The notes beneath the pieces were generated by a model. That model saw only the letters and a program-made list of their open reading frames with translations. It was not told where the DNA came from and did not search any database. A stretch of 64,000 nucleotides of DNA, taken from Streptomyces formicae. Lineage in GTDB: Bacteria > Actinomycetota > Actinomycetes > Streptomycetales > Streptomycetaceae. Shown piece by piece: positions 10,166 to 37,427 of this stretch (position 1 is its first letter; every line of letters starts with the position of its first letter). The DNA is taken from positions 682,001 through 746,000 of the forward strand of contig NZ_CP022685.1 in assembly GCF_002556545.1 (NCBI RefSeq), written 5' to 3'. The translations under genes were made by a program, and so were the position numbers.

Positions 10166-11521
10166 TCAGGGGCCGGGCGGCGCGGTGAAGCTGTGGGCAC
10201 GCTCTCGCAGTGCGGTGGCGTGGGGCTGCCGGGGGAAGCTGGCCAGGGTGCGCCGGAGGCCGGCGAGAACTTGGTCGGCCTGGGCGGAGCGCAAGTGAGG
10301 GTAGTGGTCGAGGAAGAGGTGCCAGTGGGTGCAGGCTTGCTCGAGGTGCCCAATACGTAGGAGGCTTTCGGCCAGGCGGGCCTGAGTCAGCGCGTAGAGC
10401 TTGTGCTCGGCGGGGGCGCGGTGCCGGGCGGCGTCCTGGTAGGCAGCCAGGGCTTCGACGGGCTGGTCCAGGGCGTGGAAGGTTTCCGCACGCTGGTAGT
10501 CGAGCCCGGCACGGGGGTAAACGCTGAAGGCCCCGGGTTCGATGGACGCGCGGCTGTGTGCGTGTTCGGCCGCGTCCAGGTCGGCCAGGGCAAGACGGCT
10601 CTGGCTCGTCGCGGCGCGGGTGAGGGCGCGTTGGCTGAGTAGGAAGGACCAGGCGGCCGGGGCGACGGTGGATCCGGCGATGTCAGTGGCGGCCTGGGCC
10701 AGCCGGGCGGCAGTGGGCAGATAGCCCAGGCGGAGAGCCAGGGTGCTCGTGGCGCGCAGAGTAATGGCGTAAGTGGGGCGGTGGCTGGCCTCGTGGGCCA
10801 GGGCGAGCGCGGTGCGGTAATAGTGCTGGGCCAGGCCGGGGTGTCCGGCGTCAGCAGTCATGGACGCGAGCAGGTGCGTCAGCTGTGCACAGCCGACGAG
10901 CAGTTGCCGGTGCAGTGTCTCAGTGGCCGGGGCAGACAGCAGGGAGCTGGCGTCGTCGGCAAGGTAAGCGGCCAGGGCCGAGCGGGCGTGGGCGCCACCG
11001 TGAGCGTTGCCGAGGGAAGCGAAGAGGCGGGCCGTGTCCTGCAGGGTCTGGGTGTCAGCCTCGGTCGCTCGGCGCTGCGATCTCGGTTGGTGCGGGCGGG
11101 ATTTCTGGGGCCAGTCGGGCAGTGCGACAGCGGCCGGGCTGTAGGCAGTGCGGGTAAGGAAGACCCGACGGGCGGGGTCGGTATCGTCGCGGCAGAGTGC
11201 GGTCATCCGGCGCACGGCGTCGGCCTCCTCCAACGGGTGGACGGCAGCGGCCTGCGCTGGTGCGGGGAGCTGGGCAAGACCGGTGTCCTCGACTATGACC
11301 CGACGACCGGTGCGTCGGGTCAGTGCCTGCGCGGCGAGAGCGGGAACCGGAGCGGAGGGGCGGGAGCCGGCGAGCCAGGAAGCGACCGAGGCGCGGCTGT
11401 AGCGTAGAACCATTCCCCGTGTGGTGCCCAGGGCGTTGATTGCCCGGGCCAGAGCACCCGCGCTCCAGCCGGCCTCCGCCAGGAGCGCGGCCAGCTGGGC
11501 ATTGGGATCACGACGGGCCAT
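10166..11521 (-). CDS. XRE-like transcriptional regulator with TPR-like C-terminus (copy 1)
   Basis: A 451-residue protein. The N-terminal 95 residues form a helix-turn-helix-like domain (AGWSAGALARAINALG, then YSRASVASWLAGSRPSAPVP and RRTGRRVIVEDTGL). The remainder is Ala/Leu-rich helical repeats of TPR type (for example GLAQHYYRTALALAHEASHRPTYA), expected to sense a ligand or partner. ATG at 11521 is preceded by GGAGGAAAGG at good spacing, so longer starts are not needed. It is divergent from the prenyl synthase across a 206-bp promoter region and is clearly paralogous to the regulator at 41092-42465. Its first 96 codons are duplicated in inverted orientation at 21670. Inference: it controls the divergent prenyl synthase and, through the duplicated promoter, the 578-residue gene. 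Confidence 0.8.
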   Translation of the reverse strand: MARRDPNAQLAALLAEAGWSAGALARAINALGTTRGMVLRYSRASVASWLAGSRPSAPVPALAAQALTRRTGRRVIVEDTGLAQLPAPAQAAAVHPLEEADAVRRMTALCRDDTDPARRVFLTRTAYSPAAVALPDWPQKSRPHQPRSQRRATEADTQTLQDTARLFASLGNAHGGAHARSALAAYLADDASSLLSAPATETLHRQLLVGCAQLTHLLASMTADAGHPGLAQHYYRTALALAHEASHRPTYAITLRATSTLALRLGYLPTAARLAQAATDIAGSTVAPAAWSFLLSQRALTRAATSQSRLALADLDAAEHAHSRASIEPGAFSVYPRAGLDYQRAETFHALDQPVEALAAYQDAARHRAPAEHKLYALTQARLAESLLRIGHLEQACTHWHLFLDHYPHLRSAQADQVLAGLRRTLASFPRQPHATALRERAHSFTAPPGP

Positions 11522-11727
11522 GACAGCCTTTCCTCCGCTCTCTCGAATTCGCAAGCGCACAAGCGTTTGACGCGTTTGACGCCCCGGCAGCCCAAAGCGG
11601 CTTCCCTTTCCAGCGGGCGCGGCGCTTGCTGGAGTTGTGCCCACTCTCGCGGGCTCGGAAGAAGGAAGCAGGCGGGATTTGGACACCCCCGCATCCGTAC
11701 CCTCATCCCATGAAAGGGGAGACCACC
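11522..11727. promoter_or_regulatory. Divergent promoter region between regulator and prenyl synthase
   Basis: The 206-bp intergenic region carries a tandem direct repeat at 11566-11584 (TTTGACGCGTTTGACGCCC), a plausible operator for the flanking regulator. The AGGGGA ribosome binding site of the prenyl synthase lies at 11716-11721. The whole region is copied at 21464-21669, upstream of the leftward 578-residue gene. Confidence 0.5.
11566..11584 (+). promoter_or_regulatory. Putative operator, tandem GTTTGACGC repeat
   Basis: Two direct copies of (C)GTTTGACGC lie about 160 bp upstream of the prenyl-synthase start and 45 bp upstream of the regulator start. A related 19-mer, identical at 14 of 19 positions without gaps, occurs at 40471-40489 between the second regulator and the mevalonate operon. 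Binding is inferred, not shown. Confidence 0.35.
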
Positions 11728-12768
11728 ATGGCCGCGCCTGTGGTCCGCACGCCCGCGTCGCAGGGTTTGGACCTGCTGGTGCAGGCCCGCCGGAGTGTGG
11801 AGCCGGGGCTGCGGGAGTGGGCCGGTCAGCTGCCCGCCGTCGCACGCCGCTGGGCGGGATACCACCTGGGGTGGCTAGACGCCGAGGGCCGGCCCTCGGT
11901 GGAGGCTGCGGGCAAGGCGGTCCGTCCGGCGCTGGCGTTCACCGCCGCGCGGGCGGTTGGTGGCACCGGCCAGGACGCGCTGGGTGCGGCGGTGGCCGTG
12001 GAACTGGTCCACGCCTTCTCCCTGGCGCACGATGACATCTTCGACGGCGACGCACTGCGCCGGCACCGCCCCACGGTATGGAAAGCCTTCGGGGTGCCGG
12101 CAGCGGTCCTGACCGGGGACGCACTCCTTTCGCTGGCGTGCAAGGTACTGGCCGACACACCCGGCCCGCAGTCGGCGCGCTCGGTGTCTTGGCTAGCTGA
12201 GGCCGTGGCGCAGCTTGTCGAGGGGGAAGCCGCTGACGTTGCCTTCGAGACACGCACCGATGTAACGGTGGCCGAGTACACGGCGATGGCGGCGGACAAG
12301 ACTGGTGCCCTGATGGGCTGTGCGTGTGCGCTGGGCGCCCTGGCCGGCGGGGGCGGGGACGTCCGCGCCGGGTATATGGCCGAATTTGGGCGGCATCTCG
12401 GGGTGGCGTTTCAGATCGTCGACGACCTTCTTGGCATCTTCGGTGACCCAGCAGCGACGGGAAAGCCGGTGGGAGCGGACCTCGCCGCACGGAAGAAGAC
12501 CTACCCCGTCCTCGCCGCCTTGGCCTCCGCCACCCCTGCCGGCCAGCAACTGGCCGCGATGTATGCCGCCGAGGGAGCGCTCGGCGAGGAGCAACGGGTG
12601 CGGGCCACCCAGTGGGTGGCCGACGCCGGCGGGCGCCAACAGGCGCAGCAGGCCGCCAACCTGGAGCTGGCGGCTGCGTTTACGGCGCTGGTCAAGGCCG
12701 ACCCTCAGCCGCAGGCTCTGGACGAACTGACCGCGTTGGCAGGTGTCCTGACTCACCGAAAGGCGTGA
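11728..12768 (+). CDS. Polyprenyl diphosphate synthase (GGPP synthase type)
   Basis: A 346-residue trans-isoprenyl diphosphate synthase. It condenses isopentenyl diphosphate with an allylic primer in the cytosol. The first Asp-rich motif is HDDIFDGD (Asp102, Asp103, Asp106) and the second is VDDLLGIFGD (Asp232, Asp233, Asp240). The Lys of GKAVRPAL and the KTG of ADKTGALM are also present. The chain length (GGPP is most likely) is inferred from the small residues before the first motif and from the family, and is not proven. The ATG at 11728 follows AGGGGA; a second in-frame ATG at 11710 is less well placed. It probably primes the pathway fed by the mevalonate operon at 32-40 kb and supplies the unrecognised 578-residue protein. 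Confidence 0.88.
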   Translation: MAAPVVRTPASQGLDLLVQARRSVEPGLREWAGQLPAVARRWAGYHLGWLDAEGRPSVEAAGKAVRPALAFTAARAVGGTGQDALGAAVAVELVHAFSLAHDDIFDGDALRRHRPTVWKAFGVPAAVLTGDALLSLACKVLADTPGPQSARSVSWLAEAVAQLVEGEAADVAFETRTDVTVAEYTAMAADKTGALMGCACALGALAGGGGDVRAGYMAEFGRHLGVAFQIVDDLLGIFGDPAATGKPVGADLAARKKTYPVLAALASATPAGQQLAAMYAAEGALGEEQRVRATQWVADAGGRQQAQQAANLELAAAFTALVKADPQPQALDELTALAGVLTHRKA

Positions 12769-13088
12769 TGACCAGTTCCGTACGCCACACCCCTGCGCAC
12801 CTGGCCTGCTCCTCCATGGTTCGCGCCGCAATCTGCTGCGTCACCCTTGCCGACTGTCTCATGCTGCCGGACGGCATTGAACTGCCCTGCCCGGCCGCCC
12901 CTTTGCTGGCCGGTACCGTACGCCGCAGCAGCCGCGCCGCAGTCCTGGCCCCGGTGCGCACTGCCAGACCGGGCGCCGGGGAGACACCGATGCCTGGTGG
13001 GCCGTCGGCCGCCGGTGTCCAAGGGGGCGCTCCGCATGGCACTTGCCGCCGCCACTACGGACCAACACCCAGCCCCGGCTCTTTATGA
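12768..13088 (+). CDS. Hypothetical small protein coupled to the prenyl synthase
   Basis: A 106-residue frame whose ATG overlaps the prenyl-synthase stop (TGATG), suggesting translational coupling. The product has several Cys residues and no motif I recognise, and its composition late in the frame looks random. It could be a degenerate downstream gene. A separate frame near 13136-13222 ending IDAVERLLDRGAGPV also looks like the tail of a lost protein. Confidence 0.25.
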   Translation: MTSSVRHTPAHLACSSMVRAAICCVTLADCLMLPDGIELPCPAAPLLAGTVRRSSRAAVLAPVRTARPGAGETPMPGGPSAAGVQGGAPHGTCRRHYGPTPSPGSL

Positions 13089-13395
13089 CGTAGTAGACCC
13101 TATGCTGCCGTGTCCGCTCCCCGCACGGTGCTTCTGCCGTCCCCACGCTCATTCTGCGCCGAGTGGAACGCGCTATCGACGCCGTGGAGCGGCTGCTGGA
13201 CCGGGGCGCGGGCCCCGTCTAAGGGGTCGAGTATCAACTCGACCTCAAACGTAGTTTTCTGTAAAGGAATTTTACAGGTGGTCTGATCTGCGGTGTTGTG
13301 AGGAGTAGCGAGTTGTGCCCTCAATGCGCTTGAGGGTTCGCCTGGATCCAGGCGGCTTAGTACTGCAACGGTTTTTCCCGTGACTGTTGGCTAGG

Positions 13396-13650
13396 TCAGG
13401 GGCTGTGTCCGCGTCGCTTGTAAGGGCTGATGCGGGCTTGGTGTTGGCGGCGTCGACGCCAGGTTGACCAGTGCAGGATGTGCTCGACGGCCACGGGTCT
13501 TGGGTTGGCCAGCCGCGTGATCAGACGTTTGATTTCGGCGAGGCTGAGGTGGATGAGCCGGGAGAATCCGTTTCTGCTTTGTTCGTTTCCAGCTGGCGGG
13601 CTCGCAGGACGGTGAGGCAGGCGTGGGCACCGTGGCCAGGGTCATGTGTG
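13396..13650 (-). pseudogene. IS701-family transposase C-terminal remnant
   Basis: The reverse strand, partly in two frames, encodes GHGAHACLTVLRA, LSLAEIKRLITRL and HILHWSTWRRRRQHQAR. This matches the C-terminal pattern of IS701-type transposases (AHAFL, then LSxxEIxRLL, then HxLxWSxWRRRHQAR). The catalytic part is gone. Confidence 0.55.
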
Positions 13651-13800
13651 TGGGGAGCCAGCTCCGGAGGCGCTGGCAGACCGCTGATTGGGGGCATGAC
13701 CACCGGCCTTTCCCCAGGTCGGGAGGCTCTTCGTAATGTGGATGTGGCGATCGGCGCCGTGGCTAGGCCGGGTGAACAGGACCACCGAAGGATGCTCGGC

Positions 13801-14955
13801 ATGATCGATATCAGCGGCATCGACGTTTTCCTCGGCCTGGATGTCGGCAAGGGCGAACACCACGCCACCGCCATCACCCCGGCCGGGAAGAAGGCCTTCG
13901 ACCGGAGGCTGCCCAACAGCGAGCCCAAGCTCCGTGAGGTGTTTACCAAGCTGAAGTCCAAGCATGGAACCGTGCTCGTCATCGTCGACCAGCCAGCCTC
14001 CATCGGGACCTTACCGCTGGCCGTCGCCCGTGCTCTGAACTGCGAAGTCGCCTATCTGCCGGGACTCACGATGCGTCGGATCGCCGATCTGCATCCCGGC
14101 GAAGCCAAGACCGACGCCCGCGACGCGTTCATCATCGCCGACGCGGCCCGCTCCATGCCTCACACCCTCCGCGCGATCGACGCCGACGACGAGACGGTCG
14201 CCGCGCTCGAGATGCTCGTCTGCTTCGACAACGACCTGGTCGCCGAGGCCAACCGGCTCTCCAACCGGCTCCGCGGCCTGTTCACACAGGTCCACCCGCA
14301 TCTGGAACGGGTCCTGGGTCCACGCATGCAGCACCCAGCCGTCCTGGCCCTGCTGGAACACTTCGGGTCTCCGGCCCAGCTCCGCCAGGCCGGACGCCGA
14401 CGGATTGCCACCGCGATACGTCCCAAAGCGCCCCGTACGGCAGACCGCCTGAGCAGCGCAATCTTCACTGCGCTCGACGAGCAGACCGTCGTTGTTCCCG
14501 GCACCGGGGCAGCCTCGTTGATCGTCCCTAGCCTCGCCCGGTCGCTGACCGGCTTCCTCGAACAGCGCCGCCTGCTGGAGAAACGACTCGAAGAACTGCT
14601 GGCGGCTCACCCTCTTTCCACAATCCTGACCTCGATGCCAGGAGTCGGGGTCAGGACCGCAGCTCGTCTCCTCATCGACGTCGGCGGCGGCACCAGGTTC
14701 CCCTCCGCTGCCCACCTCGCCGCGTATGCCTGACTCGTCCCGACAACCCGCAGCTCGGGCTCCTCAATCCGCGGCGAACAGCAGTCGAAACGGCAACAAG
14801 CAGCTCGAGAGGACCTTCTTCCTCTCCGCGTTCGCCGCGCTCTTCGACCCCGCCTCCCGCACCTACTACGACAAGAAGATCAAGGAAAGCAAGCACCACA
14901 CCCAGGCCCTAATCCGTAGGTACGACAGTCCAGGACGAGATCAGAGTTCGTTACG
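13801..14955 (+). pseudogene. IS110-family transposase, frameshifted and truncated
   Basis: DEDD-type transposase: FLGLDVGKGEHH (first Asp), VDQPASIG, then KTDARDAFIIADAAR (RuvC-like N-terminal domain), and the C-terminal transposase_20 region TSMPGVGVRTAARLL with the Ser-bearing segment shifted. The frame breaks at 14733 after AHLAAYA. The continuation (NGNKQLERTFFLSAFAAL, then RTYYDKKIKESKHHTQALI) is in another frame and ends in unrelated sequence. The last 135 bp are duplicated at 1284-1411. Confidence 0.85.
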
Positions 14956-15109
14956 GGCTGTTCGAGCATCAGGGCTGTGACGCTCACGACCACCCGGGCA
15001 GTTCACCCCTCACCGTAGATCGGTGCAGGGCCCTGGTGGTCGTAATGTGACGGTTGCGTGGGCGCCGGACAGATGCCTTACCCAAGCCGGGCCGCGATGC
15101 CAAAGAGGA

Positions 15110-15960
15110 GATTGCGCAGAGTTCGGCGTCCTTGCGACCGCCGATATTTACTTCCAGCCCCGCTTCGTCTTCGCAGCCATCGACGCGGGCTGCGCCGCCG
15201 TACGCTACCCCGGCAACATCACGAAACTCGATGACCGCGTCGCCGACATCGCCGAGGTCACCTCCTCCGTCGGAGTGCCCATCCGCATCGGCGTCAACAC
15301 CGGCTCCCCCGACCCGCGCCTGCTGAAGACGTACAGCCACGCCTCCCCAAGGCCCTCGCCGAATCCGCCCTGTGGGAATGCTCCCTCTTCGAGGAACACC
15401 GCGTCCGGACCTGAAGATCGCGGTCAAACACCACGTCCCCCTCACCATGATCAACTCGTACCGGGCGCTGGCCGAGCCCTGCGACTACCCCCTCCACCTC
15501 GGCGTCACCGAGACTGACCCTGCCTACCAGGGCTCCACCAAGTCCGCCGTCGCCTTCGGCGTCCTCCTGGCTGCGGGCATCAACGACACCATCCGCGTCT
15601 CCCTGTCCGCGCCCCCGGTCGAATAGGTCAAGGCAGGCCGACTGCCACAGCCTGCAGTCCCTCGGCCTACGCCCACGCAAACTGAAGATCGTCTCCTGCC
15701 CCGGCTACGGCCGCCGCCAAGTCGATATCCATCGCTTCACCGCCCAGGTCGAGGCCCCGTCGACGGCTTTCCCCACCCGCTGCGCGTTGCGGTCATGGGC
15801 TGCGTGGTCAACGGACCCGGCGAATCCCGTGAAGCCGACCTCAGTGTGTCCTGCAGCAACGGCAAGGCCAGCTCTTCGACAAGGGCAAGGTCGTGCGCAT
15901 CGTCACCGAATCCCAGGTCGTCGAAACCCTCCTGGACCGAAGCCCTGCGCCTGACTGACC
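15110..15960 (+). pseudogene. ispG: Decayed ispG (gcpE), 4-hydroxy-3-methylbut-2-enyl diphosphate synthase
   Basis: In three frames the plus strand preserves IspG sequence: [27 protein letters not shown], then [21 protein letters not shown], then [62 protein letters not shown], and finally [19 protein letters not shown]. IspG is the iron-sulphur enzyme of the MEP pathway that makes HMBPP. The first 80 or so residues are missing and at least three frameshifts or a stop (after APPVE) intervene. It was probably a dedicated precursor-supply copy in the terpenoid locus and is now dead. Confidence 0.85.
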
Positions 15961-16082
15961 AAGCTACCGTCCGCGTAGGCGGTGAAACCCCATGCCTGAG
16001 CTTCCCCGTGATCCTGGCCACTCGATCTTTGTACTGCAAGGTCGTATTGGTGTCGCTGTCGGGTCTCGGCTGGCGTGAGGTA

Positions 16083-16938
16083 GCTAAGACGTCGTTTCAC
16101 TTGGTGAGTCTGCGGTTACATATGAGGGTCGCGGTGAAGGCGAGGAAGTGTTCCGGCTTGCGCTCGTAGCGGCGGTGGAGGCGTCGGCACCCAGACAGCC
16201 AGGAGATGGTCCGCTCTACTACCCAGCGGTGTCGGCCCAGGTGTCGGGATGACTCGACGCCCCGACGGGCGAGACGGTGCCGGATGCCGCGGGAAGCGAG
16301 CCATCGCCGCAGGTAGCGGTAGTCGTAGCCCTTGTCACCATGCAGCTTGCCGGGCCGCGGGCCGCGGGCCGCGTCGAGAGCGAACGGGCAGGATGCCGCG
16401 GACCAGCGGGATGAGAGCCTGGCTGTCGTGGAGGTTGGCGGCGGAGATGCCGATCGACAGGGGCAGGCCCTGGCGATCCACGATGAGGTGGATTTTCGAT
16501 CCCTTCTTGCCGCGGTCGGTCGGATTCGGTCCGGTCAGCTGCCCCCTTTGAGAGCTCGGACGCTGACTGAATCGATCGCACACCGCGACCAGTCAAGCTC
16601 TCCCCGCGTGCCGAGTTCGTCCAGGACCAAGCGGTGGAGCTTGGCCCACACCCTGGCTTCGGTCCACTCGGTGAAGCGCCGGAAGGCGGTGACCCCTGAC
16701 AGGCCGGAGCCCGGCGGGAGTTGGGTCCATGTGCAGCCCGAGGTGGCCACGAAGACGATCGCGGCCAGCACCTCGCGGTCTCCGCGCCGACGGTGCCCCC
16801 GCCCTGCGCGCGAACCGGTGCCACCGGCACCACCCGCTGGAACAACATCCACAACTCTTCCGGCGCCATCCGCTCGACAAGCGCAGCACTCATCACCCCA
16901 GACTGCCGCAAGAACACGCCAACTGAAATGGCGTCTAA
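16083..16938 (-). mobile_element. IS5-family element with frameshifted transposase
   Basis: The ends carry imperfect inverted repeats (CTAAGACGTCGTTTCAC at 16084-16100 against 16922-16938). The transposase reads leftward from ATG 16893 to TGA 16097 but changes frame several times: VPVAPVRAQGGG, then AAIVFVATSGCTWTQLPPGSG, LDWSRCAIDSVSVRALKGG (first Asp), GPNPTDRGKKGSKIHLIVD, SAANLHDSQALIPLVRGI, then [11 protein letters not shown] near the end. It is a dead element. Confidence 0.8.
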
Positions 16939-16939
16939 A

Positions 16940-17160
16940 GACCTTGTGCTTGCGCAGCCGACGACCGTTGTAGAACACCTCGATGAAGTCGACGACCTGG
17001 GCTCGGGCAGTGACTCGGTTAAATCAGACGTGGGTTCCGATTTCCTCTTTGAGCAGGGCCCAGAAACTCTCGGCATTGCCCGAAGCAAGTTCCCGTCTAG
17101 CCGCAGCTTTGCCGGAGACGCAACTCGTTCATTAGGCAACGGATTTGACTGCTCGTGTAT
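16940..17160 (-). pseudogene. IS3-type OrfB remnant
   Basis: The reverse strand carries IAHSDRGTEYTSSQIR, MNELRLRQS, a NAESFWALLKEEIGTH block with the catalytic Glu, and VVDFIEVFYNGRRLRKHKVF. These are the last third of an IS3-family integrase domain, with small deletions and an internal stop. The upstream catalytic part is missing. Confidence 0.65.
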
Positions 17161-17225
17161 TCGGTGCCACGGTCCGAATGTGCTATGCGGCCAGGCCGGA
17201 GACGGCCACGGCCCGCAGCCATCCT

Positions 17226-17376
17226 CAGCCTCAGGTGGATCATGATGCACCGTCGGCTCGCCCGCGACTGCGAGACCAAACCCTCACCCTCAGAAAGCAT
17301 CATCCGCCTCGCGGTAATCTGCGCCCTCACCCAATGCACAACCGGCGAAACCACCCCAACCTGGCAAGACGAATAA
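17226..17376 (+). pseudogene. IS5-type transposase C-terminal scrap
   Basis: The plus strand encodes WIMMHRRLARDCETKPSPSESI and ends LTQCTTGETTPTWQDE. This corresponds to the WLMHHRRLARDYETHPHRSEAMIHL tail of the transposase at 23465-24304. Nothing upstream belongs to it. Confidence 0.55.
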
Positions 17377-17437
17377 AACGCAATCACCCATGAACTACAC
17401 GAACCAGAGGTCATCTGAGTGACAACCCTGCCCGCGG

Positions 17438-19276
17438 TTAGATCTCAAGTGTCACGTTGTAGCGACGCAGCCAGTCGTTCAGGCCCAGGACGAGCTCGGC
17501 GCCCGGCCGGGTCTCCAGGGTCGCGTCTGCCGTGGATGCCTGGGCTACGGCAGACGTATTCAGCAGGGGCAGCACGGGCGAATCGCTGTCACGAAGGACG
17601 GCCTGCAGCCCAGCGCGCAGGGCTTGTGCGTAGTGGGGATCCTGCGTGCTGGGGTAGGGGCTTTTGATTCGCTGTGAGATGACGGACGGCAAAAGGTCAC
17701 GGGTGGCGGCGCGGAGCAGTGACTTCTCCCGGCCGTCGAAGGTCTTCATGGCCCAGGGGGTGTTGAATACGTATTCGACCAATCGGTGGTCGCAGAAAGG
17801 GACGCGGACTTCCAGGCCCGTCGCCATACTGGCCCGGTCCTTGCGGTCCAGCAGGATCTGCACGAAGCGGGTCAGGTGGAGGTAGCTGATCTCCCGCATC
17901 CGGTGCTGGAGCCCCGTATCGGTGGGCAGGTAGGGGACTTCAGCTAGAGCCTCGTGGTAGCGCCGGTCCGTATAGCCGTCCAGGTCGAGTTCCGTACGCA
18001 GGCCTGTGTTCAGCAGGGCGTCGCGGGTGCCGGTGCTGCCAGAGAACCCACCGGCGATGCCGGCAGCGATCCACGGAAAGGTATCTGCGTGCACGCTACT
18101 GGGGTCGTGGAACCAGCGGTAGCCACCGAAGACTTCATCCGCAGACTCACCTGACAGGGCAACCGTAGAGTGTTTCCGAACCGCTTGAAACAATAGGTAC
18201 AGAGAGGTGTCGCCGTCGCCGAACCGGGTGGGAAGGTCATGGGCGGCCAGGACAGCCCTGCGGTGTCCAGGATCCATCAGGTCCGCCGTATTCAAGATGA
18301 TGTCGGTGTGGTCGGAGCGCACGTGCGCGGCCAAAGCGTGGGCGTAAGGGGTGTCAGGGGTGGAACGCAGGTCATCGGCGCTAAAGTTCTCGGCCTGGCC
18401 ACTGAAGTCGACGGCGAAGGTGCGGAGCGGTCCGCTGCTGCGCTGGGCGGCGAGGGCTGTGATGGCCGAGGAGTCCAGGCCACCAGAGAGCAGGGAGCAC
18501 AGCGGCACATCCGAGATGAGCTGGCGGGCCACGATGTCTTCCAAGAGATCGCGTACGCAGGCAATGGTAGCGTCGATGTCGTCGGTGTGCTCGCGGGCTT
18601 CCAGGGCCCAGTAGCGCCTGACCGACAGACCATGCCGGTCGACCCGTGCGGTGTGGCCGGGCCTTAGCTCGTACATCCCCTTGTAGATGGCGTGCCCGGG
18701 TGTCTTGGTGAACGCGATTAGTTCCGCCAGGCCGTCCGCGTCGACGCACGCGCGCGCTGCAGGATGGGCCAGGATCGCCTTCGGCTCCGAGGCGAACAAC
18801 ACTCCGTCACTGGTCGGGTAGTAATATAGGGGCTTGATGCCCATCCGATCGCGGACTAGGAGGAGTTCCTGGTCGCGTGGATCCCACAGGGCGAACGCGT
18901 ACATGCCGTTGAGGCGGCCCGGGAAAGCGTCGCCCCACTGCAGATAGGCGTGGAGCACCACCTCGGTGTCACTGCTTGTGCGGAAGATGTGCCCCAAACC
19001 TTCTAGCTCGGCACGCAGCTCCCGGTAGTTGTACACCTCGCCACTGTAGGTGACCACCAATACAGTGCGCCCGTCCCGCTCGACCTTCATGGGCTGCTTG
19101 CCGCCCTCAATGTCGATGACAGCCAGGCGGCGGTGGCCGAAAGCGGCGTGTCCGTTGAGCCACATCCCGGCGGCGTCGGGGCCACGGCAGGCTAGCGGCT
19201 CCGTCATCGCCGCAAGTGTGCTGGACTCCAAGGAAAGGTCCCGCTCGTAGGAGATCCATCCGCTGATTCCGCACAT
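17438..19276 (-). CDS. asnB: Asparagine synthetase (glutamine-hydrolysing) type amidotransferase
   Basis: A 612-residue class II amidotransferase of the AsnB family. The start MCGISGW exposes the N-terminal nucleophile Cys2 after Met removal. The glutaminase domain spans roughly residues 2-200. The synthetase domain carries the PP-loop SGGLDSS (about residue 265), which activates a carboxylate as an acyl-adenylate, and the conserved SGESADEVFGGY. Full-length architecture and intact active sites argue for a working enzyme. It lies 245 bp downstream of the 578-residue gene on the same strand. Placement in a terpenoid locus raises the possibility that it amidates a pathway carboxylate rather than aspartate, but that is inference. 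ATG 19276 has an AGAGGG at 8 nt. Primary-metabolism AsnB remains the default alternative. Confidence 0.85.
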   Translation of the reverse strand: MCGISGWISYERDLSLESSTLAAMTEPLACRGPDAAGMWLNGHAAFGHRRLAVIDIEGGKQPMKVERDGRTVLVVTYSGEVYNYRELRAELEGLGHIFRTSSDTEVVLHAYLQWGDAFPGRLNGMYAFALWDPRDQELLLVRDRMGIKPLYYYPTSDGVLFASEPKAILAHPAARACVDADGLAELIAFTKTPGHAIYKGMYELRPGHTARVDRHGLSVRRYWALEAREHTDDIDATIACVRDLLEDIVARQLISDVPLCSLLSGGLDSSAITALAAQRSSGPLRTFAVDFSGQAENFSADDLRSTPDTPYAHALAAHVRSDHTDIILNTADLMDPGHRRAVLAAHDLPTRFGDGDTSLYLLFQAVRKHSTVALSGESADEVFGGYRWFHDPSSVHADTFPWIAAGIAGGFSGSTGTRDALLNTGLRTELDLDGYTDRRYHEALAEVPYLPTDTGLQHRMREISYLHLTRFVQILLDRKDRASMATGLEVRVPFCDHRLVEYVFNTPWAMKTFDGREKSLLRAATRDLLPSVISQRIKSPYPSTQDPHYAQALRAGLQAVLRDSDSPVLPLLNTSAVAQASTADATLETRPGAELVLGLNDWLRRYNVTLEI

Positions 19277-19520
19277 ACACGTGCCCTCTCTATACCAGCT
19301 ACTGCGCAGGGCCAGTACCAGCCCCGCGGCTCACCAGCACCCTGCCATCGCTGGTCGTCAGTCAATCAGAGCAGCACATGCGTGTTGCCTGCAGAGGCAA
19401 AACGCGAGCAGCTTCACCCTCACGAGTGCTTTCTCCACCGCTACACTCGGCACTCCTTTTGAGGCGACTACGCGCGCCGCCACCTTTTGAATCAGTAAGT
19501 GCACCTCGGCGCTACCTCAA
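19277..19520. other. Intergenic region, no gene seen
   Basis: A 244-bp gap between the 578-residue gene and the amidotransferase gene, both transcribed leftward. I see no open frame with a recognisable product. A promoter for the amidotransferase could lie here. Confidence 0.4.
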
Positions 19521-21257
19521 CTAAGGTGACGCTGGAAAGATCCGGTCATGGTCACGGTCTGATGCGATAAGACCGGGCTGCGCCTCGACCAAGCTGCCAG
19601 CTCCGATGGCAAAATAGATTCCGTTCCACCACTGCTCCAGAACGAGTGCAAATACTGCCATCCCGTACTCTCGCGAGAAACCGCTCGCGTGGCCTGAATC
19701 AATCACCGTAGCGAAGTTTTCGCAATATTTGCCGTCCATATACGCGAGGAACGCATCAGCAGTAATACGCCGCTGCTGGAGAAGCATCGGAAGGACAAGC
19801 TGATAATCCACGAGACTCATGGGTATCATACCAGATTGAACAGCGTTGCACACGGCCTGATGAACCTGCAACGTCCCGCTGTGAGTATCCCCGCCGACGG
19901 AAACGGTGTACTGCATGGCACGGCGGGGCACAGACACTCTTTTCGATGTGTCAAGATCCTTGATGCCGAAGGTGGGTGTATAGCAGTCGGCGAGTTGACC
20001 GGACAGGTACATATCCCGATTGCGGGCATCGCTACATAGATCGCTGGCGAGCGTATAGTACCGCCACAAGTCATGGCGGTGGGCGCTCGACTGCCACAGG
20101 CAGGTTCCGTAGGCGAATACTGCACCTGTGTACCGCTCTTCCTTCACGTAACCACCTGGCGTGAGTTGTGCGTTAAGCATCCAGACGGTTCGCTCGTAAC
20201 AATCCAGCAGATCCGAGAGAGCCAAGGAGCCGCGTGTTAGAGCGAGTACGCTCTGAGCACACTCTTGTGCACGTAGGTCAGGCCCGAGGTCCGGCCAGTC
20301 ATTGACAAGCCCTGCGATCATCATGTCGTCGCGTCCCTCAGCACCTTCAGCAAACGACAGGTAATGGCCAAAAACACCGCTGTCAACGGCCTTGAAGTCA
20401 CGCCAAATGTCTCTATCAGCGAAGACCCACCCACTCCGCCCATCAGTTTCGCGACTCTTCATACCAGCCTCGTGACGGCGCTTAAGATCAAAGAAAGCCA
20501 TGTCACACGACATGTGCAGTCTGCGTGCCTGAACTTCAAGAGGGAGATCCGGCATATCCCACAGAGCAACAATTTCTCGCACCAAGGACTCACCTCCCCC
20601 TTCGATAATATCAACATTGTATTCAAGATAAAAAGAATACGCTAGCCAAATAAGGTAGTCTTGCCACCCGGGGCAGTCATCGGAAAGTAGCGACTCCCAC
20701 CACGAACCAACGGCAAAGTTAGGGTAGGACGCCACACCTGATAGGCCATGCCTCTCCATTACCGTGACCCATGAAGGAGAAGTGCAGGTATCAATTTTCG
20801 ATTTCGTTGACCGTCCGGCATTCTCACCCGCTCGAGCCCGAGCGTAGATCTCCCCGATCCGATCCTGGGCAACCGATACCGGGCGAAGGGCCACTTTATC
20901 ACCAACTACACCGCTGACGCGGGTGGCCTGAATGAGCTCTAGCAGTTCACGGCTTGTGAAGACCATCTCCGCACAAGCCCGCGTCCACCGAGCGAACTCT
21001 TCCCCGAGAGCAGCTGGATTATCCAAGGCCTGGTTAAGCTGGGTCTCAGGAGCGTAGCGCCAGCCAGATCCGCTACTCCAGTCCTGACCAGAATCCAGCG
21101 CTTGGCGCACACGCTGTACATGATGGTCCAAAGGAGTGCCAGCTACCGCCTTACGTGTCCACAGGACCGACATAGGCGGAGCGGTCGGAGTCACGTCGCG
21201 CTGGTACTGGTGCACTCGGAAATTCAGCGGCACCAAATCTACCGGATTGCCGGTCAT
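19521..21257 (-). CDS. Unrecognised 578-residue protein, possible non-canonical terpene synthase
   Basis: I do not recognise the family. The ATG at 21257 is chosen because GGAGG precedes it by 7 nt; a longer frame reaches 21308. The protein is rich in Trp, Tyr and acidic residues with long helical stretches and no signal peptide. At residues 317-327 it has LVNDWPDLGPD, resembling the NSE/DTE metal-binding motif of class I terpene synthases (N-D-x-x-S/T-x-x-x-E), but with Asp at the third and last positions. About 100 residues earlier is an acidic stretch (EYNVDIIEGGGE) that could play the role of the Asp-rich motif. Neither is diagnostic. Context (prenyl synthase, mevalonate operon, duplicated promoter upstream) supports a terpenoid role. 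The gene has visibly more A/T-ending codons (GAT, ATT, GTT, CTT) than its neighbours, suggesting transfer. Confidence 0.5.
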   Translation of the reverse strand: MTGNPVDLVPLNFRVHQYQRDVTPTAPPMSVLWTRKAVAGTPLDHHVQRVRQALDSGQDWSSGSGWRYAPETQLNQALDNPAALGEEFARWTRACAEMVFTSRELLELIQATRVSGVVGDKVALRPVSVAQDRIGEIYARARAGENAGRSTKSKIDTCTSPSWVTVMERHGLSGVASYPNFAVGSWWESLLSDDCPGWQDYLIWLAYSFYLEYNVDIIEGGGESLVREIVALWDMPDLPLEVQARRLHMSCDMAFFDLKRRHEAGMKSRETDGRSGWVFADRDIWRDFKAVDSGVFGHYLSFAEGAEGRDDMMIAGLVNDWPDLGPDLRAQECAQSVLALTRGSLALSDLLDCYERTVWMLNAQLTPGGYVKEERYTGAVFAYGTCLWQSSAHRHDLWRYYTLASDLCSDARNRDMYLSGQLADCYTPTFGIKDLDTSKRVSVPRRAMQYTVSVGGDTHSGTLQVHQAVCNAVQSGMIPMSLVDYQLVLPMLLQQRRITADAFLAYMDGKYCENFATVIDSGHASGFSREYGMAVFALVLEQWWNGIYFAIGAGSLVEAQPGLIASDRDHDRIFPASP

Positions 21258-21430
21258 ACCTAACCTCCAAGGTGACAACGGTGTGATTCCCATGCTTCTG
21301 CACTTCACACTTTTCTGGTGATCCTTTTACATTCGCGTAGGGGATCCATCCTCCAGTTCAGTAGCCTTGGCCCACACTCTGTAGCCGATGGGGCGTAGTG
21401 ATAGCTCTACGCTCTGAGTCAGGATCACAG

Positions 21431-21463
21431 TCACGCGGGCGTGCGGACCACAGGCGCGGCCAT
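21431..21463 (-). other. Ten-codon leader left by promoter duplication
   Basis: The right inverted-repeat copy carries the prenyl-synthase ribosome binding site and start, so the reverse strand encodes MAAPVVRTPA. It then hits a TGA exactly where the repeat ends. It sits 174 nt upstream of the 578-residue protein's start and would be translated as a mini-leader on that transcript. Confidence 0.6.
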
Positions 21464-21960
21464 GGTGGTCTCCCCTTTCATGGGATGAGGGTACGGATGC
21501 GGGGGTGTCCAAATCCCGCCTGCTTCCTTCTTCCGAGCCCGCGAGAGTGGGCACAACTCCAGCAAGCGCCGCGCCCGCTGGAAAGGGAAGCCGCTTTGGG
21601 CTGCCGGGGCGTCAAACGCGTCAAACGCTTGTGCGCTTGCGAATTCGAGAGAGCGGAGGAAAGGCTGTCATGGCCCGTCGTGATCCCAATGCCCAGCTGG
21701 CCGCGCTCCTGGCGGAGGCCGGCTGGAGCGCGGGTGCTCTGGCCCGGGCAATCAACGCCCTGGGCACCACACGGGGAATGGTTCTACGCTACAGCCGCGC
21801 CTCGGTCGCTTCCTGGCTCGCCGGCTCCCGCCCCTCCGCTCCGGTTCCCGCTCTCGCCGCGCAGGCACTGACCCGACGCACCGGTCGTCGGGTCATAGTC
21901 GAGGACACCGGTCTTGCCCAGCTCCCCGCACCAGCGCAGGCCGCTGCCGTCCACCCGTTG
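21433..21960. repeat. 528-bp inverted repeat, right copy
   Basis: Reverse-orientation copy of 11231-11758. It places a copy of the prenyl-synthase promoter so that it reads leftward into the 578-residue gene, and a truncated copy of the regulator gene reading rightward. The edges are sharp: homology begins at the A of 21433 and ends at 21960 (possibly 21965). The two copies bracket the 9.7-kb segment that holds the prenyl synthase, the amidotransferase and the 578-residue gene. Confidence 0.9.
21607..21625 (-). promoter_or_regulatory. Putative operator copy in duplicated promoter
   Basis: Reverse copy of the tandem GTTTGACGC element at 11566-11584, now about 350 bp upstream of the 578-residue protein's start. 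Confidence 0.35.
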
Positions 21961-22128
21961 AAGGATCGCGATTCGTGTGCTATCTGCAACGTAGCTCAGG
22001 GCCCGGTTCTGTTAATTTGCCGGTCCTCTTACGTTTCATTCCGGACCTATACATGTTTGCTCCATGGTTCACTGTCAGGCCTCAGCACCTCATACCCCCG
22101 TGTCGCCGAGCAGGCATCAATGAGGTAA
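21670..22128 (+). CDS. Truncated regulator copy, DNA-binding domain plus foreign tail
   Basis: A 152-residue frame. The first 96 residues are identical to the N-terminus of the regulator at 10166-11521, including the complete helix-turn-helix-like domain and its ribosome binding site. After VHPL the sequence leaves the repeat and adds an unrelated 55-residue tail before the stop. The TPR-like sensing domain is missing. If made, it could compete for the operator as a DNA-binding fragment; equally it may be an inert by-product of the duplication. Confidence 0.6.
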   Translation: MARRDPNAQLAALLAEAGWSAGALARAINALGTTRGMVLRYSRASVASWLAGSRPSAPVPALAAQALTRRTGRRVIVEDTGLAQLPAPAQAAAVHPLKDRDSCAICNVAQGPVLLICRSSYVSFRTYTCLLHGSLSGLSTSYPRVAEQASMR

Positions 22129-32255: not shown

Positions 32256-33491
32256 TCAGACGGTGGGTGTCAGGCGGCGGTGTGTGCCCTTGGAGCACGC
32301 GATGTCTGCGGAAACGTGAACCGCCTCGTAGATGCGTTGGTGATCCTCCATTCCGGAGAGACGGAATGATCCCTGAGTCTGGTGGGGCAGACGATGCTGG
32401 GAACCGTCGTCTGGCAGGGGCTGTGTGTGTACGCGGCGGTAGGCGTTGTAGTCGATGTCGCGGCGTCGCGATATCGCTTCGAGGTGTGCGGTGGTGCGGA
32501 GCTGGGCGCGGTAGCCGGGGACGACTCGTCCGGTAAAGAATTCGGCGACGCTTCCGGAGCCGTAGCTGAAGAAGCCGAGCGTTTCTGCGTCGAGTTCGTC
32601 TTCTGCGTCCAGCAGGGACGCGAGGGCGAGATAGAGGGATGCGGTGTAGCTGTTGCCGATGATTTCGTTGTAGTGGGTCGTGGGTGCGATGGCGTGATCG
32701 GTTGCTGTGGCGTCGGCTTCGACGCCTGCAGTGTCGAGGAGGTGTCGGTGGGCTTTGAACGCCATGCGCGTGAAGGGCTGGTGGTAGCAGACGGTGCGGA
32801 TCTTCTCGATCGAAAGGCCCTCGCGTGCCTGGTAGTCGTGCCATGCCCCTTCGACTGCTGCCAGGTAGGCGGCCATGGACTTCTTCCCGTTGACGAGAGC
32901 GGTGGCGCGGTAGTTGGGGCGCCAGAAGTCCATGACGTCGTGTGTGTACAGACCGGAGGGGGTGTTGATCTCGACGAGGGAGGGGTCGACTGAGACCAGC
33001 ATGGCTACCGCGGCAGCCCCTTGGGTGGCCTCTCCCGGGCTGTCGAGGTCGTAGCAGGCGATGTCACTGGCGAGAACCAGGACCTGCTGCTCGGGCTCGC
33101 GCTGGACCAACGCGGCCGCGAACTGGAGGGCCGCAGTCGCTCCGTAGCAAGCTTGCTTGAGCTCGACGACCCGGATGTTCGAGGGGAGGTTGAGCAGCGA
33201 GTGAACGTACACGCCCGCCGCTTTGGACTGGTCGATGGATGTCTCGGTGGCAAAGAGGAGCGTGCAGATCCGGTCGGTGCCGTGGCGTTCGATGATCGGT
33301 GCCGCTGCGTCGGCAGCCATAGTGACGATGTCTTCGTCGGCGGCGGGTAGGCTCATCGCCTGCTGGCCGAGGCCTTTGTGGTATTTCGCCACGCTGGCGC
33401 CGGTGTGCTTGCTGAGTTCGGCGTGGGTGAGGACGAGGCTGCCTGTGCGAAAGGAGAGGTCGTGGATGCCTACGGCGCGATCATTGGTCAT
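32256..33491 (-). CDS. mvaS: Hydroxymethylglutaryl-CoA synthase
   Basis: A 411-residue HMG-CoA synthase that condenses acetyl-CoA with acetoacetyl-CoA in the cytosol, the first committed mevalonate step. The triad is Glu83 in FATETSID, Cys115 in ELKQACYGATA (acetylated nucleophile) and His237 in YHQPFTRMAF. The C-terminal GFFSYGSGSVAEFF, which shapes the active site, is intact. Its ATG at 33491 overlaps the HMG-CoA reductase stop by 11 nt, implying translational coupling. This is the last mevalonate gene of the leftward operon. The length is normal for the actinobacterial family, and it looks functional. Confidence 0.95.
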   Translation of the reverse strand: MTNDRAVGIHDLSFRTGSLVLTHAELSKHTGASVAKYHKGLGQQAMSLPAADEDIVTMAADAAAPIIERHGTDRICTLLFATETSIDQSKAAGVYVHSLLNLPSNIRVVELKQACYGATAALQFAAALVQREPEQQVLVLASDIACYDLDSPGEATQGAAAVAMLVSVDPSLVEINTPSGLYTHDVMDFWRPNYRATALVNGKKSMAAYLAAVEGAWHDYQAREGLSIEKIRTVCYHQPFTRMAFKAHRHLLDTAGVEADATATDHAIAPTTHYNEIIGNSYTASLYLALASLLDAEDELDAETLGFFSYGSGSVAEFFTGRVVPGYRAQLRTTAHLEAISRRRDIDYNAYRRVHTQPLPDDGSQHRLPHQTQGSFRLSGMEDHQRIYEAVHVSADIACSKGTHRRLTPTV

Positions 33492-34572
33492 GGTGGCCTC
33501 CGTTGAGGCGTTCGAGACGGGTGTGGGCCTTCATGAGTTCGCCAGGATTGGTCTGGGCGGCGAGCAGCGACAGTTCGCCGCAGAGCACGGTGGCCGCGGC
33601 AAGGACGGCGAGACGGCGTGCGTTGTCACCGGCGGGGCGCTCCTCGCGGCAGCCGAGGGTGGTGAGTGTTTCCTCGATGAAGTCGAGGCCTTTACCGTTG
33701 CCGACGGTGCCAACGATCAGGTTGGGCAGGGTGCAGGAGAAGTAGAGTTCACCGCCGCGGTCTTCGGCGAGGGTGACGCCTTGGGAGCCTTCCACGATGT
33801 TGGCGGCGTCTTGGCCGGTGGCGAGGTAGAAGGCTAGAAGCATGTTCGCGTAGTGGGCGTTGGCGGAACGGATGCCGCCGGCCAGAAGCGTGCCCACCAG
33901 GTTCTTGTTGGTATTGAGTTTGGAAATTTGAGCAGCCGTGGTGTGCAGACGGCCTGTCACCACCTGCTCGGGGATGAGTATCTCCGTGGTCACCTTCTTG
34001 CCTCGGCCCAGGAGGCCGTTGATGGCGGTGGCTTTCTTGTCAGTGCAGTAGTTGGCGGAGATCGATCCGTAACGGATGCCGGGCACACACTCGAGAAGAT
34101 GGCTCAGCAGGGCGTCTGCAGCAAGGGTGGTCATGTTGTGACCGGAGGCGTCCCCCGTGCTGAACTCGAAGCGCAGAAACAGTAAGCAGCCGACAATCTC
34201 GTCCCGCATGCTCAGCAGTTCGGCGAACCGGCTGGTGGCGCGTGTGAGGGCACGCAGTTCATCGATGCGCCCGTGTACGGCACGGGCAGCGGTGTGAGCG
34301 ATTTCGGCGGTGTCCGCTTCGACGAGGACGGAGCGGGTCATGCGCTCGTCCATGAGGGTGGCAGTGATGCCGCTCTCGACCATCCTGGAAATCTGCGCGC
34401 CGCGACCGACGGCCGGCCATAGTGGCGACTCGTAGGTTGCCAGGGGCACCTCGGTCTCGGTGGTGGCCACGTTTCCCGACACGCGCAGCGGGCCGACCCA
34501 GCGCGTGGGAATATGCGCTTTGGTCCGCTTGTTCCGGTCGGAGGGCTTGGGCCGGGTGGGGTGTTCGTTCAT
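33481..34572 (-). CDS. mvaA: Hydroxymethylglutaryl-CoA reductase (class I type)
   Basis: A 363-residue HMG-CoA reductase that makes mevalonate using NAD(P)H. Recognisable blocks: RWVGPLRVSGNVATTE, then ATYESPLWPAVGRGAQIS, MTRSVLVEA, FEFSTGDASGHNM, NYCTDKKATAING (catalytic Lys), ATGQDAANIVEGSQG (catalytic Asp), CTLPNLIVGTVGNGKGL and LAAQTNPGELMKAHTRLER (His near the C-terminus). It matches the type in Streptomyces mevalonate clusters. The ATG at 34572 is preceded by GGAG; the open frame extends to 34800, but that part is decayed idi sequence. It overlaps mvaS downstream. Confidence 0.95.
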   Translation of the reverse strand: MNEHPTRPKPSDRNKRTKAHIPTRWVGPLRVSGNVATTETEVPLATYESPLWPAVGRGAQISRMVESGITATLMDERMTRSVLVEADTAEIAHTAARAVHGRIDELRALTRATSRFAELLSMRDEIVGCLLFLRFEFSTGDASGHNMTTLAADALLSHLLECVPGIRYGSISANYCTDKKATAINGLLGRGKKVTTEILIPEQVVTGRLHTTAAQISKLNTNKNLVGTLLAGGIRSANAHYANMLLAFYLATGQDAANIVEGSQGVTLAEDRGGELYFSCTLPNLIVGTVGNGKGLDFIEETLTTLGCREERPAGDNARRLAVLAAATVLCGELSLLAAQTNPGELMKAHTRLERLNGGHHDQ

Positions 34573-34579
34573 CAGTGGT

Positions 34580-35203
34580 CTCCGTGGTGGTTTGGGGCTG
34601 TCGATATGGGGTCGATCGCAGAACAGGCGAAGGGAGCCGGATACGAGTAGGTCCCGGTCGGTGAGAGCGGCTGTGCTGTGGGTTCCCAGGAGTGTCATGA
34701 GCGCCCGAGCTGTTCCAGACAGTTGGTGATCTGCTGGATGAGAGCAGTTACCCCACCGGTGAGGAGGGTGGTGAGGAGGTTCCGGGGGCGTCCACCGCAT
34801 GGGCTCCCAGGGCCAGTGCGCGGGCGGTATCCAGCGGGTGGCGGATGTCGCCCGATGCGAACAGGGGCAGGCCGTGGCCGCACGCGTCGAGCAGGGCGGC
34901 CGGAGCGGTCTCCTTCGGGCATGAAGGTCCCATCGGCGGCGATTGCCAAGTCGCCGTTGATCTCCCGGTTCTTATGCTGCCGCCGGCCATGGCGTTGATG
35001 TAAAGAGGGACTGGCCGGTCCAGTCCGCCGAACCGAGTGCGCAGTGAGATGCGGTCTCGGATGGTTCCAGCCAGAACGTGGTGGATGAAGTGCACTTCGT
35101 CGAACCGGCTGGGTGGGTGTGTTGGGTCGGCTAGGTCCTCATCGGCTATTTCGTGCTGCGCGACTGCCAGCCGCGCACAGTCGTCTTTGCGTGATCCGCT
35201 CAC
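34580..35203 (-). pseudogene. idi: Decayed type 2 isopentenyl-diphosphate isomerase
   Basis: The N-terminus is clear: SGSRKDDCARLAVAQHE, RFDEVHFIHHVLAG, then RPVPLYINAMAGGSIRTG. The next 180 or so residues, including most of the FMN-binding barrel, are deleted. Reading resumes with ALLDACGHGLPLFASGDIRHPLDTARALALGAHAV and then breaks. A different frame carries the tail, LMTLLGTHSTAALTDRDLLVSGSLRLFC. It sits where an intact idi is found in Streptomyces mevalonate operons. The enzyme that would make DMAPP from IPP is therefore not encoded here, and DMAPP must come from the MEP pathway or another isomerase. Confidence 0.92.
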
Positions 35204-35214
35204 GGAGACAGTCC

Positions 35215-36426: not shown

Positions 36427-37427
36427 CAGCGCACCGTCTTGTCGAGTGTCGCGCCGGGCCCGCTGCGGGCCACCACCGCCACGCAGCCCGACAGCTGACG
36501 CAGTACGCAGGCCACACGCTCCGCGTCGTCGCTGGCGCACAGAACTTTGACGTTGGGCCCGGCATCCATCGTCGCCCATGCCTGTAAGCCATGGGCGCGC
36601 ATACGGTGCACCTCCTCAAGTACTCGGTGCGAAGCGGGGGTGCGGTAGTGCACGGGCGGCACCGCACTCTCCATGGTCTGATGCATGCCGAGGGCGTTAC
36701 GCTCGGCAATTGCGCCCACGGTGGCGATATCGCCCCGGGCCAACGCCTCGCGCATGACCGTGCAGTCGCCACGGGCCATGCCGAGCCAGTCGGAGAAGAG
36801 TGGCGAAGTTTTCACCGTGCGCCGCATGGCCTCGCGGCTGGAGACCGGCTTGGGTCCGGTCTCCAGCAGGGCCGCGACCAAGGCGAGGTCCAGTGTCGTT
36901 TTCGCGAGTGGCTCGGCATAGGAGGCAAGGTCGGGATCTGGGGCGTCAGGTGCGCCGGCATGCCAGATGGCAAAACCGCCGAAGATGGACCGGGCAGCGG
37001 ATCCGGACCCGCGGCGGGCCAGTCGTGACAACTCCACCGGTTCGACCGGCAGGCCGTAAGCGGAGGCTGCAGCGAGCGCGAGGGCGGCGAACCCGCTGGC
37101 CGATGAGGCCAGACCGGCGCCGACTGGAACGGTGTTGCGGGTTGCCACCACGGCAGCCTCGGACCTTCCGGCCCGCTCGCGGACGAGATCCAGAAAGCCG
37201 GTGATACGCCGGGCCGTCGCGCCCCGGTCCACGGCACCGTCCACGATCACCACATCTTGCGCCTGGCAGTCGACGAGTCGGATCTCTGTAGTAGTGGGAA
37301 AGACATCAAGTGTCATCGACAGGCTGTCGGCGCACGGCAGGACGAGGTCTTCATCGCGCTTTCCCCAGTACTTGACCAGCGCAATGTTGGGATGGGCCAC
37401 TGCGACACAGCCGTCAGATCCCGGCAT
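36426..37427 (-). CDS. mvaD: Diphosphomevalonate decarboxylase
   Basis: A 333-residue GHMP-fold enzyme that makes isopentenyl diphosphate from mevalonate diphosphate with ATP. Signatures: HPNIALVKYWGKRD at the N-terminus, ADSLSMTLD, the phosphate loop VPVGAGLASSASGFAALA, RRGSGSAARSIFGGFAIW, and the C-terminal TMDAGPNVKVL with the catalytic Asp. The start overlaps the end of mevalonate kinase by 14 nt and the stop overlaps the phosphomevalonate kinase start. All key residues are present. Confidence 0.94.
   Translation of the reverse strand: MPGSDGCVAVAHPNIALVKYWGKRDEDLVLPCADSLSMTLDVFPTTTEIRLVDCQAQDVVIVDGAVDRGATARRITGFLDLVRERAGRSEAAVVATRNTVPVGAGLASSASGFAALALAAASAYGLPVEPVELSRLARRGSGSAARSIFGGFAIWHAGAPDAPDPDLASYAEPLAKTTLDLALVAALLETGPKPVSSREAMRRTVKTSPLFSDWLGMARGDCTVMREALARGDIATVGAIAERNALGMHQTMESAVPPVHYRTPASHRVLEEVHRMRAHGLQAWATMDAGPNVKVLCASDDAERVACVLRQLSGCVAVVARSGPGATLDKTVR

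What the first reader, a model, noticed from the sequence alone, without database searches (positions are those of the whole stretch)
11231..21960. Inverted duplication has copied the prenyl-synthase promoter upstream of an unrecognised gene
The 528-bp segment at 11231-11758 recurs in reverse at 21433-21960. It carries the regulator's 5' end, the divergent promoter, the prenyl-synthase ribosome binding site and ten codons. In the second copy that promoter faces the 578-residue gene (start 21257), and the copied prenyl-synthase start is closed after ten codons by TGA. This would put the new gene, and probably the amidotransferase behind it, under the same control as the prenyl synthase: promoter capture by duplication.
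Basis: partly seen in the sequence, partly recalled or inferred. Interest (0 to 1): 0.85.

Follow-up and report, generated by a model that had tools for sequence, protein, structure and literature searches.

The report
Copied promoter upstream of foreign gene
A Streptomyces bacterium carries a second, letter-perfect and inverted copy of the control region of a terpenoid-pathway gene, pointed at an unnamed, foreign-looking gene that may belong to the same pathway, which looks like a recent rewiring whose effect on expression is untested.

Summary
11231-11758 and 21433-21960 are identical inverted copies (528/528), the only two in the 9.6-Mb genome. Copy A is the native one: a related genome (G284) has the same divergent pair, an NsdA-family regulator and a prenyl synthase, and its spacer shares a short block (AACGCGTnnAACGCTTGTGC). 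Copy B is derived: a 69% GC block between 52% and 57% GC sequence, upstream of a 56% GC gene and facing it. It carries the whole spacer, the prenyl synthase's first ten codons and then TGA, and on the other strand a regulator truncated after 97 residues.

The unrecognised 578-residue protein belongs to an uncharacterised family found in actinobacteria, myxobacteria and ascomycetes. Its confident model realigns best with class I terpene synthases, but Foldseek support is weak, and no sequence profile or canonical motif supports that, so it is not filed as one. The window also holds mevalonate-pathway genes.

Promoter capture is the best reading, shown as anatomy only: no expression data, a copy too alike to its donor to show selection, and no mapped promoter or operator. 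Co-transcription of the amidotransferase is unproven (244-bp gap).

The parts
11226..11758 (+). Copy A (native): regulator codons 1-97, divergent spacer, first ten codons of the prenyl synthase
   Evidence: synteny with G284
21433..21965 (-). Copy B (derived), inverted, 528/528 identical core; 69% GC block between 52% and 57% GC
10166..11521 (-). NsdA-family TPR-like regulator (451 aa)
   Evidence: NF053720, 310 bits against cut-off 75
11728..12768 (+). Polyprenyl diphosphate synthase (346 aa)
   Evidence: PF00348 E 1.4e-60; nearest NCBIfam model NF041169, 414 bits, below its cut-off of 450
11563..11582 (+). Tandem 9-bp element in copy A; in regulator sense it holds AACGCGTCAAACGC, followed by TTGTGC
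21609..21628 (-). The same element in copy B
21431..21463 (-). Copied prenyl-synthase start: ten codons (MAAPVVRTPA), then TGA
21670..22128 (+). Truncated regulator: residues 1-97 + 55 unrelated residues (152 aa)
19521..21257 (-). 578-residue gene, uncharacterised family; predicted fold may resemble class I terpene synthases; GC 56%, GC3 0.59
17438..19276 (-). Glutamine-hydrolysing asparagine-synthase-like amidotransferase (612 aa)
12840..13160 (+). Probable remnant of ispH (38% over 131 columns to the G284 operon gene, E 1.9e-7)
15140..15968 (+). Frameshifted ispG remnant
40470..40487 (+). CGTGAACGCGTTGAACGC element between the KASIII-like gene and the second NsdA-family regulator
32256..38484 (-). 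Mevalonate-pathway genes: HMGS, HMGR-like (below its model's cut-off), PMK, MVD, MVK
39139..40425 (-). Ketoacyl synthase III-like gene (matched part starts near 40074), acetoacetyl-CoA-synthase candidate
   Evidence: role by analogy with ppzT/nphT7
41014..42465 (+). Second NsdA-family regulator (57% identical to the first)

Best explanation
Shown: about 530 bp of the divergent regulator/prenyl-synthase control region has an identical, inverted copy about 10 kb away, ending (after the copied stop codon) 173 nt upstream of a low-GC gene and facing it; the first copy is the native one. Inferred: the copying was recent (or the copies are kept alike by gene conversion). Inferred: the copy supplies that gene with the prenyl-synthase promoter and with the regulator's site, so that both genes answer to the same NsdA-family regulator; transcription passes a 10-codon leader and reaches the gene's own RBS (GGAGG before ATG 21257). 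Inferred: the gene product acts on, or with, the prenyl diphosphate made by the prenyl synthase, so the copy ties a foreign enzyme to its substrate supply. Inferred: the junctions look like illegitimate recombination or template switching (TCCT shared on one side, no adjoining target duplication seen) rather than transposition.
For: Identity and uniqueness. Donor identity: G284 has the same divergent pair (regulator 52%, prenyl synthase 60%) at the head of a prenyl synthase-ispH-dxs-ispG operon beside a PF19086 terpene synthase and a P450; our window keeps ispH and ispG remnants behind copy A. A spacer block is conserved between own copy A and G284. Related elements lie 39-70 bp upstream of 7 of 22 related regulators, all seven in the same sense and above all 30 shuffles of their own sequence (the consensus was drawn from six of those seven). 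GC step: copy B 69%, flanks 52% and 57%, gene 56%. No terminator-like site between the copy and the gene on its strand.
Against: No expression data. Zero differences in 528 bases mean a very recent event or gene conversion, so selection cannot be shown. No sigma-70-like promoter is found in the copied spacer by consensus; the one site found near by (21304-21333) points away from the gene; copy A's spacer has none either. Streptomyces promoters often escape such scans (recalled). A random insertion would face some nearby gene perhaps one time in ten (rough inference from gene density), so position alone is weak. Own copy A scores only 12/18 against the element consensus, within shuffles, and 15 of 22 related regulators lack the element; only one of the 29 prenyl-synthase relatives examined, G284, has both regulator and element.
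Confidence: 0.6

Rival explanations
1. Copy B is a neutral by-product of rearrangement in an IS-rich, decaying arm region; the 578-residue gene uses its own promoter or is silent.
For: The flank beyond copy B holds short fragments that recur in many genomes (81 of 150 searched, own included), probably IS-derived (inference), and there are broken genes near by. The identity is perfect, so there has been no time to show constraint.
Against: The copy takes in a complete divergent control region and points at the gene; the 578-residue gene is open and keeps the residues that are invariant in its family.
Confidence: 0.3
2. The important product of copy B is the truncated regulator (21670-22128): DNA-binding part without the TPR part, made from an identical upstream region and RBS, competing with the full regulator at both copies of the site.
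For: An ORF of 152 aa keeps residues 1-97, start and upstream sequence; the NsdA-family profile matches its N-terminal part.
Against: That match (71.4 bits) is just under the family cut-off of 75; the 55-residue tail is unrelated sequence and may make the protein unstable; no binding site has been tested, and that residues 1-97 bind DNA is inferred.
Confidence: 0.15
3. Assembly artefact: a repeat end wrongly joined upstream of the 578-residue gene.
For: The identity is perfect.
Against: Single-contig genome; the sequences flanking the two copies differ at both ends; a block this short is easily spanned by long reads (not checked).
Confidence: 0.03

Closest known systems
Promoter capture in laboratory evolution (Pseudomonas wrinkly spreaders, PMC4395868; a second-step capture in PMC10621929; E. 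coli growth on citrate as cited in PMC4395868; passages read)
   Same: A gene gains expression by coming under another gene's promoter through rearrangement.
   Different: The captures in the PMC4395868 passages arise by deletions that fuse genes; this one is an inverted dispersed copy that leaves the donor intact, in a natural genome, and without expression proof.
Duplication-driven activation of horizontally acquired genes (PMC11111574, abstract read)
   Same: A duplication with short microhomology borders activates a foreign gene.
   Different: Tandem and selected for copy number there; here inverted, 10 kb apart, single-copy gene.
Terpenoid cluster of genome G284 (L104): terpene synthase, P450, NsdA-family regulator, prenyl synthase, ispH, dxs, ispG
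   Same: Orthologous divergent regulator/prenyl-synthase pair and conserved spacer block.
   Different: A PF19086 terpene synthase and an intact MEP operon are present; no 578-type match in that genome and no full-length second copy of the spacer.
Mevalonate clusters of prenylated Streptomyces products (endophenazine, PMC3326630, passages read)
   Same: Mevalonate genes with a KASIII-like acetoacetyl-CoA synthase (ppzT) beside a prenyl-using pathway.
   Different: Other regulators (TetR, LysR) and a prenyltransferase there.

Membership tests
Promoter capture by duplication | A copy of another gene's control region lies upstream of and faces the gene | tested here: met
Promoter capture by duplication | Donor copy identifiable and retained | tested here: met
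   synteny with G284
Promoter capture by duplication | The gene is transcribed from the captured promoter | not testable with these tools
   needs RNA
Class I terpene synthase (578-residue protein) | Class I terpene synthase alpha fold | tested here: inconclusive
Class I terpene synthase (578-residue protein) | DDxxD/E aspartate-rich motif (motif form recalled) | tested here: not met
   A DDxx[DE] string in 5 of 31 members; the invariant acidic stretch is ExxxD (E212, D216)
Class I terpene synthase (578-residue protein) | NSE/DTE triad (motif form recalled) | tested here: not met
   1 of 31 members has the relaxed form [ND]Dxx[ST]xxx[EDKR]; the family has invariant DxxDxxxD (D320, D323, D327) preceded by N in 20 of 31
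Class I terpene synthase (578-residue protein) | Profile similarity to a terpene synthase family | tested here: not met
   No Pfam/NCBIfam match at E 0.001; hhalign with 14 PF19086 proteins probability 0.2; no solved structure by profile at E 1
NsdA-family TPR-like regulator (10166-11521) | NF053720 above cut-off | tested here: met
   310 bits against 75
Transposition of the 528-bp segment | Target-site duplication adjoining the edges | tested here: not met
   Edges read by eye: no adjoining direct repeat; GATCCT occurs on both sides but 6 bases off the edge on one side; TCCT microhomology with the donor. Terminal inverted repeats were not searched for separately

The most novel reading that the evidence does not exclude
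The 578-residue family is a so far unrecognised class of terpene-cyclase-like enzymes, shared by actinobacteria, myxobacteria and ascomycetes and unrelated in sequence to known ones, and this genome shows it being enlisted into a terpenoid pathway by copying the control region of the prenyl synthase that makes its substrate, together with a truncated competitor of the regulator.
Probability: 0.3. Interest if true: 0.82.

Novelty: new variant of a known kind. Interest (0 to 1): 0.52.

Why it matters
If true, it is a natural snapshot of how a horizontally acquired biosynthetic gene is tied to a host regulator in one step, with donor and copy still identical, so the effect can be tested by deleting one copy. 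It also points to an uncharacterised protein family, present in bacteria and fungi and without a Pfam or NCBIfam match here, that may be terpene cyclases.

Tried and rejected
A regulon reading of the tandem element: TKRACGCSTTKRACGC occurs 4 times in the own genome (3 in the window, 1 before ispH) with 0 for the reversed pattern, which looked like an isoprenoid regulon. By eye, none of the 29 other genomes whose ispH upstream region was printed has the element (a TACGAT string is in 28 of the 29, but the printing was anchored on it, one mismatch allowed). 42 of 120 other genomes have at least one match to the pattern, and many have matches to the reversed control. So the ispH hit is taken as chance. 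The pattern was drawn up after seeing the window's own sites. The element before the second regulator is a perfect match (18/18) but 604 bp from that regulator's start, so its role is unclear.

The first relaxed search found 6 of 22 relatives, the scored one 7 of 22; 15 of 22 have no such element. The scored consensus was drawn from those six, the shuffles are simple (30 per sequence, blocks of two bases), and some of the seven are near relatives, so this is suggestive, not a test of function. Of the 29 prenyl-synthase relatives examined (the best-scoring loci, where 327 of 382 genomes, own included, had a match), only G284 has both the regulator beside it and the element; G073 and G337 have partial regulator matches without the element; the loci reach only about 1.5 kb out.

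Terpene-synthase membership: sequence tests were negative. Foldseek's first rows are unrelated membrane proteins. A second structure job on residues 26-430 with three sequences gave a poor model (pLDDT 45) and was not searched. Distances E212-N319 (107) and N319-R399 (80) resemble known terpene synthases, but those spacings are recalled and no residue superposition was available.

No empty site was found: for the flank 21966-23464, 81 of 150 genomes searched (own included) gave matches, apart from the own locus only short ones from about base 575 of the flank onward; a near-identity search of plasmids gave only partial matches, and nine of the ten rows listed (of 94 records) lie under transposase genes, the tenth record having no annotation. 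In the three family contexts checked (L036, L037, L038) there is no amidotransferase match within the roughly 8-12 kb held on each side; L038 has a P450-like ORF beside the gene (20.7 bits, below the cut-off of 22.8). The class-wide search with the family alignment found only the own genome in 394; the genus search 4 of 392 with the own one, two of them weak. The one genome-contig scan, made with a single sequence, gave one locus.

Papers: PMC4395868, PMC10621929, PMC6592883, PMC12243394 and PMC3326630 were read as passages; PMC11111574 as abstract and outline; others as search listings only. No listing of searches showed a paper on such a repeat or on this protein family (which has no name to search by); NsdA with 'terpene synthase' gave 0 papers, 'promoter duplication' with Streptomyces and gene clusters 1 unrelated paper. 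The library holds open-licence papers only.
Full report
The repeat. 11231-11758 and the reverse complement of 21433-21960 agree at 528 of 528 bases; with five more bases at one end, 532 of 533. The own genome, one contig of 9,611,874 bases with the window at 682001-746000, has these two places only. Among 392 genus genomes (own included) the next best match is 70% over 252 bases. No other repeat of 150 bases or more found in the window exceeds 83%. The genus is Streptomyces by inference: G284 is in the same genus, and its terpene synthase (P0065) is named Streptomyces sp. NBC_01304 on a contig of the same length.

What it contains. Copy A holds codons 1-97 of an NsdA-family TPR-like regulator (NF053720, 310 bits), the divergent spacer (11522-11727), the ribosome binding site, and the first ten codons (ATG 11728) of a prenyl diphosphate synthase (PF00348). 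In copy B the prenyl-synthase side points at the 578-residue gene: ATG 21463, ten codons, TGA, then 173 nt to ATG 21257, which has its own GGAGG. On the other strand copy B has a 152-residue ORF, 97 regulator residues and 55 unrelated ones.

Which copy is native. In genome G284 (L104) a regulator (52% identical) and a prenyl synthase (60%) form the same divergent pair, followed by ispH, dxs and ispG, with a PF19086 terpene synthase and a P450 beyond the regulator. In the window, behind copy A, there are remnants of ispH (12840-13160, weak) and ispG (15140-15968) with an IS110 transposase gene between them; dxs gave no match. Copy A therefore sits in its old place. Copy B (GC 69%) lies between 21258-21432 (52%) and 21966-23464 (57%), upstream of a gene of 56% GC with GC3 0.59, against 0.81 for the prenyl synthase and the regulator.

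A conserved element. The spacers of own copy A and of G284 share AACGCGTnnAACGCTTGTGC while most of the rest differs. Scored against CGTGAACGCGTTGAAMGC, 7 of 22 related regulators have 15-18 of 18 within 39-70 bp of their start, all in the regulator's sense, where 30 simple shuffles of each sequence reach at most 14; the consensus was drawn from six of these seven. The own site scores 12 of 18, inside the shuffle range, and is recognised only by its core and position (41 bp). The second regulator of the window has an 18/18 site, but 604 bp away. A genome-wide link with ispH was tested and dropped. The one paper on NsdA binding that I looked into (PMC12243394, passages) reports promoter binding by gel shift; the terms 'motif', 'consensus' and 'footprint' do not occur in its main text.

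Setting. The window also has HMG-CoA synthase, an HMG-CoA reductase-like gene (below its model's cut-off), phosphomevalonate kinase, diphosphomevalonate decarboxylase and mevalonate kinase (32256-38484), a KASIII-like gene and a second NsdA-family regulator. A KASIII-like acetoacetyl-CoA synthase accompanies the mevalonate genes of the endophenazine cluster (PMC3326630, passages). An isoprenoid pathway is thus likely, with the mevalonate route perhaps standing in for the decayed MEP genes of the cluster (inference).

How it most likely works. Shown: an intact control region has a second copy that faces a foreign-looking gene. Inferred: the copy drives that gene, and the regulator reads both copies. 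No terminator-like site lies between on that strand; the one promoter-like site near by (21304-21333) points away from the gene, and the spacer of copy A has no promoter-like site by the same scan. The amidotransferase starts 244 bp beyond the gene, so co-transcription is open. Because the arms are inverted, recombination between them would flip the 9.7 kb between, yet leave each gene with the same control region (inference).

Verdict. Observation confirmed; promoter capture is the best reading but not proven. The kind of event is known from laboratory evolution, while a dispersed inverted copy of a whole divergent control region in a natural cluster did not appear in the papers I saw.

Noticed in passing
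window 21670-22128 (+): Truncated NsdA-family regulator (97 native residues + 55 unrelated) with a start and upstream region identical to the full gene; possible competitor.
   Followed up: partly
window 32256-40425: Mevalonate genes with a KASIII-like gene; only 414 bp lie between HMGR and PMK, too little for an isopentenyl diphosphate isomerase gene there (elsewhere not searched).
   Followed up: no
window 12769-17437: Decayed MEP operon (ispH and ispG remnants, dxs not found) with an IS110 transposase gene (ORF 13471-14733) and an IS4/5-type transposase remnant (16338-17023).
   Followed up: partly
window 23465-25615: Two IS5-type transposase genes facing apart, with inverted repeats 75-79% alike.
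   Followed up: no
P0024-P0064: 17 of the 64 family members bear names of ascomycete fungi, at 43-55% identity to the bacterial protein, suggesting transfer between kingdoms.
   Followed up: no
L037 (Streptomyces clavuligerus plasmid), match at 12001-13671: A 578-family member on a 1.8-Mb plasmid near a BTAD-domain regulator and a methyltransferase; no annotated feature in that stretch of the record.
   Followed up: partly
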